From Ceratotherium simum simum (Eukaryota > Chordata > Mammalia > Perissodactyla > Rhinocerotidae): a DNA stretch of 64,000 bases. The notes under the pieces were generated by a model, which did no database searches, was not told the DNA's origin, and saw only the letters and a program-made list of their open reading frames with translations. The first letter of the stretch is position 1, and each line of letters starts with the position of its first letter. The stretch lies in assembly GCF_000283155.1 (NCBI RefSeq), contig NW_004454160.1:9441285-9505284 (forward strand), written 5' to 3'. Positions 49,301 through 58,300 of the stretch are shown here, piece after piece. Both the position numbers and the translations under genes were made by a program.

Positions 49301-52300
49301 GTTACCATAGATTGCCAAAAAGGTGGTCCTCCAATCACTGCCAGCAAATGCATGATTATTATGAAGATTTGCACTTCAGTCACATCAATTCTGATTAGGT
49401 ACAAAAAGCCAGAAAAGCAGAATTATTCAAAACAATTTCAAGTTAATTACTTGCAAGCTTAGCAGCATTCCTCTATCATGCACAATAGAAAAAATCTCAA
49501 ATATTGAGGAAAGGGGAGAAGGAGGTGTCAAAAATTTGTTATGAGCAAAATCAAATAAAATCCAGAAACTTTTAATTTAATTTGATGAATTTCACAGAGC
49601 AATAAAAACCCCTCCCTTCCAAAGGAAATTTCTCACTCACTGAAGTTGGGCTGAAACTATAGCTTAACCTTTCCCACCAAAAACAAACAAACAAAAAGAG
49701 TACGTGTGTGTGTCTATTAAATTTTGAGTATCAAGCAGAGGATTGCACTGTACTGGTATATGAGATCTTGAAATACGTGCTTTGTAGTATCAAATGGAAG
49801 AAATGGTGAGCTTTTACTAAAGTAACATAAATCACTGAGACCTTGCAAAATTTACCGCCCTTTAGATATATTCATTTAATGTCTCCCATGGTATGGGTGT
49901 GAAAAAAAATTCACCCAATTCTCAATCAAATTCTTATGCTCATTAGGTCAACTACTCTAAGATTTCTGGAAAGAAGATACTGAAAGCAGCCAAGAATTAG
50001 CTTTGAGGTTGCTGAAAATGATCTCACAGTCAAGAAGAGACAAACCTGGTACAAAAATAGGGCAGTAGAAATTAGAAGTCTGAAAGTCTGAAAAAAAGAA
50101 TATGGGCAAAAAGACTGAGGAGCAAAGCATAAACCCGTGTTCCTTTCCTTCTGTAGACTAGCACTTTACATAATCTTGAGATTATCATTCTCAGATTATT
50201 GGATCCAAATGCTTTCTAATTTTGAGAATTTATCCTACAGATATGCTTGCACGAAATGGTTGTACAAGGTTACTCATTACAGTATCACTTAAAATAGCAA
50301 AATTTAAAAAACATCCCTCAATGAAGGAACGGTTATAGAAATTATGGTACTTCCATACAATGGAATATTTGGTAGCTTATAAGAAAAGAGTGGGGTAGCT
50401 CCCTATATAGTGGTATGGAAAAATATCAAAGATATATTAGGTGAAAAAAAACGTTGCAGAATGTGTATATGCTACTTTTTGTGTAAAAAAAGAAGAAAAA
50501 TAATATTCTATTTTTATTTTTGCCAGTAATTGCATAACAAATTTCTGGAAGGATACATTACAAACTAAGAACAGTGGTTCCTTATGGGAGAGGAACTGGA
50601 CAGCTAGGAGATGAGCATGGGAAGGAGACTAATCACTGCATACCTTTTTTAAAATGTTAGTTTGTAAACAAAGTGATTAATGTTTCTACTAAAGTAAATT
50701 TAAAAAATCAGTTTAAGAAAAATAGGTATCAACAACAGCAAGGGGGTTCAATTCCCACAACAGAGCCCCCATCTCTAAAATTGACACTTAAAGCAGACAA
50801 TCTATAATGTGAGCTTAAGATATGTAAGCTCTCATGCCCATGATAAATAACTAGGTTGAAACCGGTCTCTCACAACTAAAAAATTGATCTCTGTTTGCTC
50901 AAGAATATTTTTTAAACAGAAGCTTATTAAGCTGCAAACATATAGTGATGTAGTTATCTTGATATACACATTTCTTGGAAAAAAATGGACTGAATTAGGC
51001 TAAAAAGAATCTGTAGAGCTGACCTGGTGAATGGTGTTGCCAATAAGGGGAATTACACTCAGTAGCAGACTCAGGAGACTAAGCAGGTGTCAAAGATGAT
51101 CGACTCTGTCTTGGGTGGAGGAGAGCAGACATCTTACAACATTTTGCTGGATATATGAAGTAGCCTTTTGGGAGGGGAAGGGCCAGAAGTATAGAATTAC
51201 AAAATAAAAATGGAGGGAACCTCATGCAATTAATCTTTGTACCTTGGATGAATGTAAAAGAGAATAGGAAACATGAAAGATCTTTAAAAAGTCCCAAACT
51301 GGGATTCCTATGGAAAGTTTTATGAATAAGCCTGTTTGGAAATTTTGGAAGACAGAATTTTCTAAACCACTGAGATACCGTTACTGTATTTTGAGCAACA
51401 ATGCCTTAACGTTAGGAAGGAGAGCCAGGGAAAACTTACTTACCAGTTGGTAGTCAGTTAAGAATATTTTTTCCTGTTTGCTTATCTGATTTAGAGGAAT
51501 ACTCTGTACTCCAGGATAAGGCCCTCCTGCTCTTAATCATGAGAACTGCCTATCAGCACTCCTGGAGGTGTGGCTCTAATCCTGACTCTCAATGAGAAAG
51601 GGTGCAGTACGAGGCCATCCCCAAAGACAGGAACTAAGCACGCTAAGAGGGACAGGTGGCAGAAATGATTAACAGTGAACAAAAGAGTTAATGATTCTGC
51701 TCAGAAGAGAGCTGGTTACATGATAGTTCATTTTTCTACCTTTCCACTAAGAAGTCTCTCAGTATGGGCTGAATTTACTATAATACAGATTAGGAAGGGG
51801 CTCATTTTACTCTTTTTGGCTATGCAGGAAAGACATAGTTATCTTAGAAGGGAGAATATTATATAAAGGCAGGAATTTGGCAGGCCGGCCCCATGGCTTA
51901 GCGGTTAAGTGCGCGCGTTCTGCTACTGGCGGCCCGGGTTTGGATCCCGGGCGCGCACCGACGCACCGCTTCTCCGGCCATGCTGAGGCCGCGTCCCACA
52001 TACAGCAACTAGAAGGATGTGCAACTACGACATACAACTATCTACTGGGGCTTTAGGGGAGAAAAAAAAAGGAGGAGGATTCGCAATAGATGTTAGCTCA
52101 GAGCTGGTCTTCCTCAGCAAAAAGAGGAGGATTATTATGTTAGCTCAGGGCTGATTTTCCTCACAAAAAAAAAAAAAAAAAAAGGCAGGACTTTGGTATT
52201 TCTGTAATCACTTCCTTATTATTATTATTTTGAAAATAATAACATGGGTAAATAATACTCCCAAGTGTTGGGATTATTTCTCATAAACAAAAACCAAAAA

Positions 52301-55300: not shown

Positions 55301-58300
55301 GAAAATGGCTTTAGTTTTGCTCCTAAAACATGCCTATAGTACTTCTCAGTACTCTCCACATTCCAAGATTTTTGAAAAAAAGATGTAGAATATCCTTCAC
55401 TATTAGTTTGTCCCCAAAGCCATCATTACTGCCACTGAATAACTGGATTTACAATGTTGCAAGATACCTTTCAGAAATCATTGTAGGAAATCTAATGCAG
55501 TCTGGTATTGCTAGAATGATCTGTCAGGTGTCCATGTGAACAGTTTCCCAACACACTCTGAACTGCAAAATAATAGAATCTAAGCTCTATTTTTCTTGTA
55601 AATAAACCTTTTCCTAATAAATCTTTTTGAACTTTTAAAAGTCATAAAGTCAAAATTATAATTCTAATATGAGAGAAAAAAGGTACGTTACTTACTCTTA
55701 GCATTAAGAAAATATGTATTTACTAAAAAACCCCCCAAAATCTGAAAAAGAAGGGTATTCAAAGGATGACTACAGTAACATGAAAAGCTAAGGATACTTA
55801 GTTTTAAAAGCACAAAAAGAGAAGAAAACAGTAAACAAAACAAACAGAAGTAAGAATAGCTTCTAGCATTAATTTTTTAAAAAACCAAGATCATTGAAAA
55901 TAGAAGCAGAAGAACTAGTATTAGATTGCTTAAAGGATACACTAAAGAAGTCACGAGGAGAAACAGAATCTTTCCCACATTACTACAGAGTCCTCTCAAC
56001 TTACCTAAGGAAAACTCTGCTTGCTTTATTCTGTTTTCAAAATATAAATACCAAAAAAATTCTATTTAATGGTGGAAAGGTATTTGTTTTAAGAATATTA
56101 CATAGAGCAAAAATGATATTAGGTATAGTAGGTAAATGGGAGAGAGGATTGTTTTCAGCATCAAATCACTAGAAATATTACTTTTCAAAAAATTTTGTTT
56201 AATAGGGTGGATTTTTATTGCCCTATTATATATTAAAATTTGTTTTTTAATAACCTGTTTGTCTGTGAAATACCACCAAGAGGACTTTTGATTTTCTGTT
56301 TTTTAATTACTCTGTGCATGACAAAGGTGCTGTCTTGATTGAGTTCACACCATTGTTCACTGGACAGCAAGAATATTCTGGCAGTTACCGTGAAGTTCCA
56401 GAACCAAGGTCCCAGGGTTCCTGTGAGAAGCTGGAATATTATAACTATGATCTGGGACTCTGTAACATCGAGTCTATGCACAAGGAAACAAACATTTCAA
56501 AATAACTTTACTCAGAGCTTTTGCTAAAGAGCCCTACTAAAACAGGTAGCAAAAACAGATTTAAAAGGTAGCATTCTCCATAAAGACATCTAAAGACTCA
56601 ATGATACAATTTATACAGTACTATTACTATCCTTATGTATACATGTATATTTCTTACCAAAATCAAAATAGTAGAAAAGTTTAAAAATCAAAACTGTAAC
56701 ACACTGAATAAATGACTTGTAAATAGGCAGTTGGAAACACTAGAAGTAAAAACGTCAACTCTCAATTACTTAGGAATGGTAAACACTACTTGCCAAATAG
56801 TCACACTGTCTGTGACATGGGTTCCTTCAGTGCCAGAGCCTATCCAGACTTCCCTGTGGATAGGAGTGCTTCCCAGAAGCTCCAAGGGATAGTCACCTAT
56901 GTGTTTGAAAAACCACTAATCGTCTCACACCCCTTCGATGCCCCATACCTCATCACGCTCCTCCCTCTCTATCTCAGTAAAATCGGTACATGTTCATGGA
57001 AAGGGCAAGTGGGAAGGTGTGAGTGACTTCTCTGGATACGGTTAGAGCAAAAATCAAACTGGTCATCTCTTTGTCCTGTTTCCTGAGAATCTTTAGTCCA
57101 GAATCTTATTCTTTTTTCCTCTTTCTCATTTCTTAATTCCACACCAGCATTATAACTCGCTACTACACTGGATTAGTTTATTAGTGGTAAAAATAAGTAA
57201 AACATCCAATTCAATCACTAAAGAAGTTTTGGAACACAGATAGTGACAGAAAAGAGTAGCAGTATAAAATAGGCTTTGAATCAAAGCTACATAATCCAAA
57301 TTAAGAACTGAGGAATGCTAATGAGACAGACACAGGTCCACGATTTTATCTGATGATCTGAGAGTCAAAACAGCAATCTAGGTTTTACATTAATACAAAC
57401 AGTTGTTTTAGGATATTATCTATAATAATTTAATAAAATTAAAATGGGCAGAGTACAAATGAATGAATCACTGCTGAGAAAAAAAAGGATAAGGAAACTA
57501 GAAACTAAAAGGAAAATCTCTGGTATTTAATAATTCACGTGATAAATCTTAAACATTTAAAGATATGCAGATCCTACACAGGCATTCAATAGGAAGTTTC
57601 CTAATTCTTAATCCACAGAAAGTGGATTATACATTAACAGACAATAGTTTTTAATTACTAAGAGGTCTTGAATACTTATTCTTTTTTTTTTTTTTCTCCA
57701 AATACCTATTCTTTAGAGGTCCTTTGGGTAAGAAGATGAACCGGATTTATCAGACCACCAGTAGAATACATAGCCTATTAACTTTTTTCATTTAACTATA
57801 GAAAAGAAAAAGTCAGAAGTTATTTACTTACATAGAAATAAACGTTTGGTGGCAGGGTTTTTAGGTAACGTAAATATGAAACCTTAGAAGCATGAATTGA
57901 AAAATGTGATAAAGTGAAGATAAATATTCTGCCTGCTATAATTATAAATAATAAGTACATTAGAAATAATACCTGTAAAATTAATAGACTCATAGAAGAA
58001 AACTTAGATATCATCTAATCCCAAACTCTTATTTTACAAATTAGGAAACGAGGCCCATGAAAGTTACGGGCCTTGCCCAAGCTGATATATAGACAAGATA
58101 ATTTGGAGATAATACTTAAGGCAAGATATACTGGTCTAAGTTTAATTTATTATAATTTCTTTCCTTTTTTTTCCTATGATAACTTGACTATTTTTTTTTT
58201 AATGAAATGATAATTTAAGTAAGAGTTCTACCTTTCACAGTGTGGAAGGTGTTTTTTAAGGCCGATGTTTTGCATAAATATAGTTTTATTAAAGATTGTT

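What the first reader, a model, noticed from the sequence alone, without database searches (positions are those of the whole stretch)
49306..56473. CEPT1 carries two versions of one 85-base exon that look mutually exclusive
On the minus strand, 56389-56473 and 49306-49390 are both bounded by AG acceptors and gtaact donors, are exactly 85 bases, enter in the same phase (an A completing AT|A Ile) and leave in phase 0. Their 28-residue products are 14/28 identical, sharing DVTE, the hydrophobic run and GP.FW. Because 85 is not a multiple of three, skipping both or taking both would break the frame, so exactly one must be used. The second is the peptide of the standard human protein. The first would change one membrane helix and its flanking loop in an enzyme that uses both CDP-choline and CDP-ethanolamine. 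It could thus alter lipid substrate preference, membrane thickness fit or location. The diverged third positions together with an intact frame point to an old duplication kept by selection. I know of no described CEPT1 isoform of this kind, but I cannot search.
Basis: partly seen in the sequence, partly recalled or inferred. Interest (0 to 1): 0.88.

Follow-up and report, generated by a model that had tools for sequence, protein, structure and literature searches.

The report
Swappable lipid-gate exon in CEPT1
The gene for CEPT1, a major enzyme that makes cell-membrane lipids, carries two very old versions of the exon for one of its membrane helices, and cells likely use one at a time, which would change which fatty building blocks the enzyme takes in.

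Summary
Two 85-base minus-strand exons of CEPT1 (A, 56389-56473; B, 49306-49390) share phase, AG acceptor and GTAACT donor; their peptides are 14/28 identical. Either gives an intact 416-residue protein; both or neither gives an early stop. A is no chance ORF: it stands far above every other open AG-85-GT block in 104 kb except B. Of 121 database proteins fetched, 50 carry an A-type and 75 a B-type peptide. A occurs in sharks, rays, chimaera, ray-finned fish, coelacanth, amphibians, reptiles, birds and mammals, and A and B separate completely on a tree (support 99), so the pair likely predates living jawed vertebrates. Three A-type proteins come from contigs of 1.9-2.4 kb, too short to hold the intron-bearing gene. 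The exon is transmembrane helix 5, which lines the acyl chamber and diacylglycerol gate of human CEPT1. A kept E215 in every peptide seen and D212 in nearly all, but mostly replaces V216 and F219 of the chamber wall. I infer a splicing switch of diacylglycerol choice in an active enzyme. Automatic gene models already list such isoforms; I found no paper describing them in the library searched. Splicing in this species, tissue use and function are untested.

The parts
56389..56473 (-). Exon A (alternative exon, 85 nt), encodes LDVTESQIIVIIFQLLTGTLGPWFWNFT = CEPT1 residues 211-238
   Evidence: AG acceptor GTTTGTTTCCTTGTGCATAG, donor ACG|GTAACT; A-type homologues in 50 of 121 fetched proteins
49306..49390 (-). 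Exon B (standard exon, 85 nt), encodes IDVTEVQIFIIIMHLLAVIGGPPFWQSM = residues 211-238
   Evidence: AG acceptor GGCTTTTTGTACCTAATCAG, donor ATG|GTAACT; 28/28 identical to human CEPT1 8gyw
62524..62665 (-). Upstream constitutive coding exon (142 nt), ends ..FG(I) leaving two bases of the Ile codon
   Evidence: tblastn and splice-site assembly
45258..45389 (-). Downstream constitutive coding exon (132 nt), starts IPVLNIQ in phase 0
44616..44774 (-). CEPT1 coding exon (159 nt)
43977..44102 (-). CEPT1 coding exon (126 nt)
43252..43371 (-). Coding part of the last CEPT1 coding exon, with stop codon (120 nt)
49391..56388 (-). 6,998-nt intron between A and B; far too long for steric exclusion of the two exons
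49477..49482 (-). TGCATG (RBFOX-type motif, name recalled) 92 nt upstream of exon B; candidate regulator site
   Evidence: two such sites within 100 nt of an 85-nt block: 71 of 16,749 placements (0.4%)
49268..49273 (-). TGCATG 33 nt downstream of exon B; candidate regulator site

Best explanation
CEPT1 has a pair of homologous 85-base exons that each encode transmembrane helix 5, and likely one of them is spliced into each mRNA, which would swap the wall of the enzyme's fatty-acyl chamber and diacylglycerol gate and so change which diacylglycerols become phosphatidylcholine and phosphatidylethanolamine. Shown: the exon pair, its frame logic, A- and B-type peptides throughout jawed vertebrates, and A-form proteins encoded on transcript-sized contigs. 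Inferred: this species splices A; regulators choose the exon while reading frame and nonsense-mediated decay remove the wrong combinations; the A enzyme is catalytically active, because the CDP-binding motif and the proposed catalytic histidines (His155, His197) lie in constitutive exons and A keeps E215 in every peptide seen and D212 in nearly all; and its acyl selectivity differs, because V216 and F219 are replaced.
For: Exon pair and frames. Conservation: 42 distinct A and 46 distinct B peptides, E215 in 42/42 and 46/46, D212 in 40/42 and 46/46; A|B split with support 99 and 0 of 89 peptides misplaced. Transcript-sized contigs with the A form: P0004 (2442 nt), P0036 (1917 nt), P0040 (2053 nt), against about 27 kb of genomic coding span here. 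Structure paper PMC10156783 (parts 1-3 and 5 of 5 read): V213, V216, F219 and I220 of TM5 line the acyl chamber; V216A is reported to reduce activity and alter diacylglycerol use, V216L loses 40% activity, Q217L 60%; diacylglycerol is proposed to enter between TM5 and TM6. V216 is kept in 6/42 A and 45/46 B peptides. Residue 219 is aromatic in 1/42 A and 44/46 B, and small (A, C, S, G, T) in 37/42 A and 0/46 B. A/B-discriminating positions of TM5 lean to the chamber face: permutation p 0.008 for that face, 0.036 for any face.
Against: No RNA reads from this species were seen, and no function of the A form has been measured. A is less conserved than B: 11-22 against 19-27 of 28 identical between seven clades. 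Residue 216 in A is not fixed (S 14, L 10, A 8, V 6, T 4), Q217 is kept in only 28 of 42, and in the placental-mammal A peptides residue 219 is Ile, not small. V216 mutants lose activity, so A could simply be a weaker enzyme. The role of E215 is not described in the parts of the papers that I read. Most A proteins are automatic gene models; 11 of 50 are not cleanly flanked by the neighbouring exons. The face test assumes an ideal helix and uses related sequences.
Confidence: 0.6

Rival explanations
1. The exon pair is real and used one at a time, but the swap mainly changes lumenal modification, location or partner binding, not acyl choice. The A form has an Asn at residue 236 in the TM5-TM6 loop, often as an N-x-T glycosylation sequon, which the B form lacks.
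For: N236 in 36 of 42 A peptides (1 of 46 B); full N-x-S/T sequon in 25 of 42 A and 0 of 46 B, including the window-type WNFT. N and C termini are cytosolic and there are ten TMs (passages of PMC10182977), so the TM5-TM6 loop should be lumenal.
Against: The sequon is missing in the sharks, rays, chimaera, bowfin, conger, several other teleosts, the coelacanth and a caecilian (one search list), and the loop looks short, so a transferase may not reach it. The A/B differences lean to the chamber face of TM5.
Confidence: 0.2
2. Exon A works mainly as an off-switch: its use, or its read-through into the intron, yields a weak, truncated or decayed product that lowers CEPT1 activity.
For: Frame-breaking combinations are predicted NMD targets. 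Models of Bos and Camelus read from A into the intron, and the camel model ends there. The residue-216 changes reported in the structure paper lower activity.
Against: A-type peptides have the same 28-residue length and keep E215, G231 and W235 in 42 of 42 distinct peptides across jawed vertebrates, which a mere off-switch would not need. 39 of 50 A proteins are in-frame swaps between the neighbouring exons.
Confidence: 0.15
3. Exon A is a relic: an old duplicate now rarely spliced in mammals and drifting, so this window shows a decaying exon.
For: A evolves faster than B. Its donor scores 6.4 on a recalled matrix, with C at +5.
Against: The B donor scores alike (6.6), two constitutive CEPT1 donors score lower (5.0, 6.3), and the A acceptor scores higher than B's (8.6 against 5.8). 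The window's A peptide differs from the muntjac's at 3 of 28 residues, with no stop. A transcript-sized contig most like a primate's (P0004) carries the A form.
Confidence: 0.05

Closest known systems
Homologous mutually exclusive exons / tandem duplicated exon substitutions in human genes (PMC5740500; PMC9741552)
   Same: Adjacent homologous exons of equal length and phase, ancient, lengths not divisible by three so that joint inclusion breaks the frame (377 of 629 human clusters are of that kind, PMC5740500 passages).
   Different: CEPT1 is not named in the main text of either paper; their supplementary lists could not be opened, so absence from those lists is not shown. The exchanged piece lines a lipid-substrate chamber of a phospholipid synthase.
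Standard CEPT1 (human structures 8gyw, 8gyx; PMC10156783)
   Same: All other coding exons are shared; exon B is 28/28 identical to human; the CDP-binding motif is in a constitutive exon.
   Different: Exon A replaces residues 211-238 (TM5 and its loop), changing 14 of 28 residues, including V216 and F219 of the acyl chamber.
CHPT1, the Golgi paralogue (8ero, 8erp, 9uet)
   Same: Same fold and same helix, with DVTE..Q and the Trp shared.
   Different: A separate gene. Its peptide falls on the B side of the tree. Whether it has its own second exon was not tested: that genome search was sent 20 times and never answered.
coq-2 alternative splicing in worms (PMC7434440; title, start of abstract and word counts only)
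   Same: Alternative splicing of a membrane lipid-synthesis enzyme tied to a change of substrate, with mutually exclusive exons named in the text.
   Different: A different enzyme and lineage; that the coq-2 exons are homologous and from C. elegans is recalled. Listed as the nearest functional parallel.

Membership tests
Homologous mutually exclusive exons | Neighbouring exons homologous in sequence | tested here: met
   14/28 residues, 47/85 bases; profile control
Homologous mutually exclusive exons | Same length, same phase, intact splice signals | tested here: met
   Both 85 nt, same phase, AG and GTAACT
Homologous mutually exclusive exons | Joint inclusion or joint skipping is not productive | tested here: met
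   Both combinations meet an early stop, 499 and 407 nt before the last junction; decay itself is predicted
Homologous mutually exclusive exons | Each exon is used in real mRNA, one at a time | tested here: inconclusive
   39 of 50 A proteins are clean swaps; three A-form contigs of transcript size; no junction reads, none from this species
Homologous mutually exclusive exons | Evolutionary conservation of both exons | tested here: met
   A and B types across jawed vertebrates, split supported at 99
Homologous mutually exclusive exons | Steric or U2/U12 mechanism of exclusion | tested here: not met
   A-B intron 6,998 nt and GT-AG sites; competing RNA structure was not tested. Not required of members: frame-incompatible clusters are 377 of 629 in PMC5740500
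CEPT1 (class II CDP-alcohol phosphotransferase) | D1xxD2GxxAR..GxxxD3xxxD4 motif and full-length frame in the A isoform | tested here: met
   DAIDGKQAR..GELFDHGCD in the assembled 416-residue A isoform
CEPT1 (class II CDP-alcohol phosphotransferase) | Catalytic activity with CDP-choline and CDP-ethanolamine in the A isoform | not testable with these tools
   Needs an enzyme assay

The most novel reading that the evidence does not exclude
Jawed vertebrates tune the fatty-acid make-up of newly made phosphatidylcholine and phosphatidylethanolamine by splicing: one of two versions of helix 5, over 400 million years old, is fitted into CEPT1, trading a Phe/Val-walled acyl chamber for a more open or more polar one, and in many lineages adding a lumenal glycan site at the same time.
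Probability: 0.45. Interest if true: 0.86.

Novelty: new member of a known kind. Interest (0 to 1): 0.72.

Why it matters
CEPT1 is reported to account for most choline-phospholipid synthesis activity in HEK293 cells (abstract of PMC8387743). How cells set the acyl composition at this last step is an open matter (my judgement). An exon switch in the chamber wall, kept across jawed vertebrates, would make it directly testable with existing structures and CPT1/CEPT1 double-knockout cells, and would mean that lipid studies using only the standard cDNA have looked at half of the enzyme.

Tried and rejected
Rejected: chance ORF; a third exon copy; steric exclusion (6,998-nt intron); an invariant small residue at 216 as the A signature (it varies); a universal glycosylation sequon (25 of 42); unusually weak donors of A and B (6.4 and 6.6, but two constitutive donors score 5.0 and 6.3). 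I considered that A is the ancestral form, because the two chelicerate peptides fall on the A side, but CHPT1 falls on the B side and 28 residues are too few to root the tree; left open. Seven paper searches bear on CEPT1 splicing or exon pairs and three on structure or specificity. I saw the listings, an outline with abstract, parts of PMC10156783 and passages or zero counts in other papers, not the whole of every paper listed. None of what I saw describes the pair. The sheep paper PMC10825154 names CEPT1 among genes with differential splicing, but its passages give no exon. The primary paper for V216A (Henneberry 2002) is not held, so that result is taken from PMC10156783. The AlphaFold model of P0006 has low confidence (mean pLDDT 60); it gives a helix at 213-230 and matches 8gyw best (TM 0.77), and nothing else is taken from it. 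No nucleotide data of other species were at hand, so no dN/dS.
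Full report
What is there. On the minus strand the window holds CEPT1 from its third coding exon to its stop codon; the first two coding exons lie just beyond the window end. Between the exon ending at 62524 and the exon beginning at 45389 lie two 85-nt exons, A (56473-56389) and B (49390-49306). 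Both complete the same Ile codon, both end in phase 0, both have the donor GTAACT. Spliced with A or B the frame gives 416 residues without a stop; with neither or both it stops 407 or 499 nt before the last junction, which predicts decay. Introns are 6,050 nt (before A), 6,998 nt (A to B) and 3,916 nt (after B).

More than chance. I built a profile from B-type peptides only and scored every open 85-nt block between AG and GT in 104 kb, both strands: 167 blocks, B 99.7, A 23.8, next best -32.4; among 2,999 open 28-codon windows between the constitutive exons on the coding strand the next best was -19.4. A search of the own genome with the A peptide returned only this place, but that search scored a single candidate and did not return exon B either, so it does not exclude diverged copies elsewhere.

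Who else has it. Three protein searches (12, 9 and the best 120 of 992 matches listed) gave 121 proteins. I classified all of them: 50 carry an A-type and 75 a B-type peptide, 6 of these carry both, each time A before B, and 2 more are single-form chelicerate proteins set aside as outgroups. The queries were A forms, so these numbers say nothing of how common A is. 39 of the 50 A proteins have A cleanly between the neighbouring exons; the other 11 are read-through or odd models. A types come from Mustelus, Heptranchias, Cetorhinus, Pristis, Narcine, Callorhinchus, sturgeon, paddlefish, bowfin, many teleosts, coelacanth, newt, frogs, caecilian, gecko and other lizards, birds, Bos, muntjac, camel and bats (names from the tables). 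Entries are representatives of 90% clusters, so species lists are lower bounds. On a tree of 43 A, 46 B and 4 outgroup peptides the A|B split has support 99 with none misplaced. One duplication before the jawed-vertebrate radiation is the simplest reading; its age in years is recalled, not computed.

Is it transcribed. Three A-type proteins come from contigs of 2442, 1917 and 2053 nt, far shorter than the roughly 27 kb that the coding exons span here, so they must be cDNA or a retrocopy. P0004 differs from my recalled human CEPT1 at 2 of 388 residues outside the exon, so it is probably from a mammal close to primates; its species is unknown. The A form of this species has not been seen as RNA.

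What it would do. The exon is residues 211-238, TM5 and its following loop. [quoted passage not shown] The authors cite V216A as reducing activity and changing diacylglycerol use, and measured a 40% loss for V216L. The Xenopus CHPT1 paper (PMC10182977, passages) also places diacylglycerol entry between TM5 and TM6. In A, V216 is kept in 6 of 42 distinct peptides (B: 45 of 46) and residue 219 is aromatic in 1 of 42 (B: 44 of 46), mostly Cys or Ser; in the window it is S216 and I219. E215, G231 and W235 never change among the A or B peptides; D212 is kept in 40 of 42 A. Positions that tell A from B lean to the chamber face of the helix (p 0.008 for the face set by 213, 216, 219 and 220; 0.036 without naming a face; ideal 100-degree helix, residues 213-230). 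I therefore infer an active enzyme with different acyl choice. This step is untested.

Against it. A diverges faster than B, Q217 is kept in only 28 of 42 A peptides, residue 216 varies, placental-mammal A has Ile rather than a small residue at 219, and the published changes at 216 lowered activity. A rival role is a glycan: 25 of 42 A and 0 of 46 B peptides have N-x-S/T at 236-238, but not those of sharks or the coelacanth.

How the choice is made. Intron length and GT-AG sites argue against steric and U2/U12 exclusion. On a recalled matrix the A and B donors score 6.4 and 6.6, with C at +5; the six other CEPT1 donors score 5.0 to 11.1, two of them below A. Acceptors score 8.6 (A) and 5.8 (B), against 7.6 to 14.1 for the other internal and last coding exons, so B has the weakest acceptor. 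Two TGCATG sites lie 92 nt before and 33 nt after B, a placement met by 71 of 16,749 positions; this is a lead for RBFOX, not a test.

Known or new. Seven paper searches on CEPT1 splicing or exon pairs and three on its structure or specificity showed no account of the pair. The library holds open PMC papers only, I read listings, passages and parts, and supplements could not be opened. Automatic models in NCBI and UniProt do list A-type isoforms. It is a new member of the known class of homologous mutually exclusive exons, in an enzyme where the swap falls on a mapped substrate chamber.

Noticed in passing
window 56388-56233, minus strand: The intron right after exon A stays open for 51 codons in the same frame; the first 45 match read-through models of Bos (36/45) and camel (38/45), and the camel model ends shortly after. 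It could be an alternative end of the transcript or a conserved intronic control element.
   Followed up: partly
window 49477-49482 and 49268-49273, minus strand: Two TGCATG motifs flank exon B at -92 and +33, out of four in the 17,134-nt stretch between the constitutive exons.
   Followed up: partly
protein P0019 (Centruroides sculpturatus, 662 aa): A scorpion model carries the TM5 peptide twice (177 and 395), identical both times, as if the gene region were duplicated in tandem or mis-assembled.
   Followed up: no
tree: Chelicerate peptides join the A side and vertebrate CHPT1 the B side, hinting that the exon duplication may predate the CEPT1-CHPT1 split; 28 residues cannot settle it.
   Followed up: partly
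proteins P0029, P0032-P0035, P0039, P0055 (catfishes): Catfish A peptides begin FDSTELQL or YDSTELQL, so V213 of the chamber is Ser there, a lineage in which the A form departs further from B.
   Followed up: no
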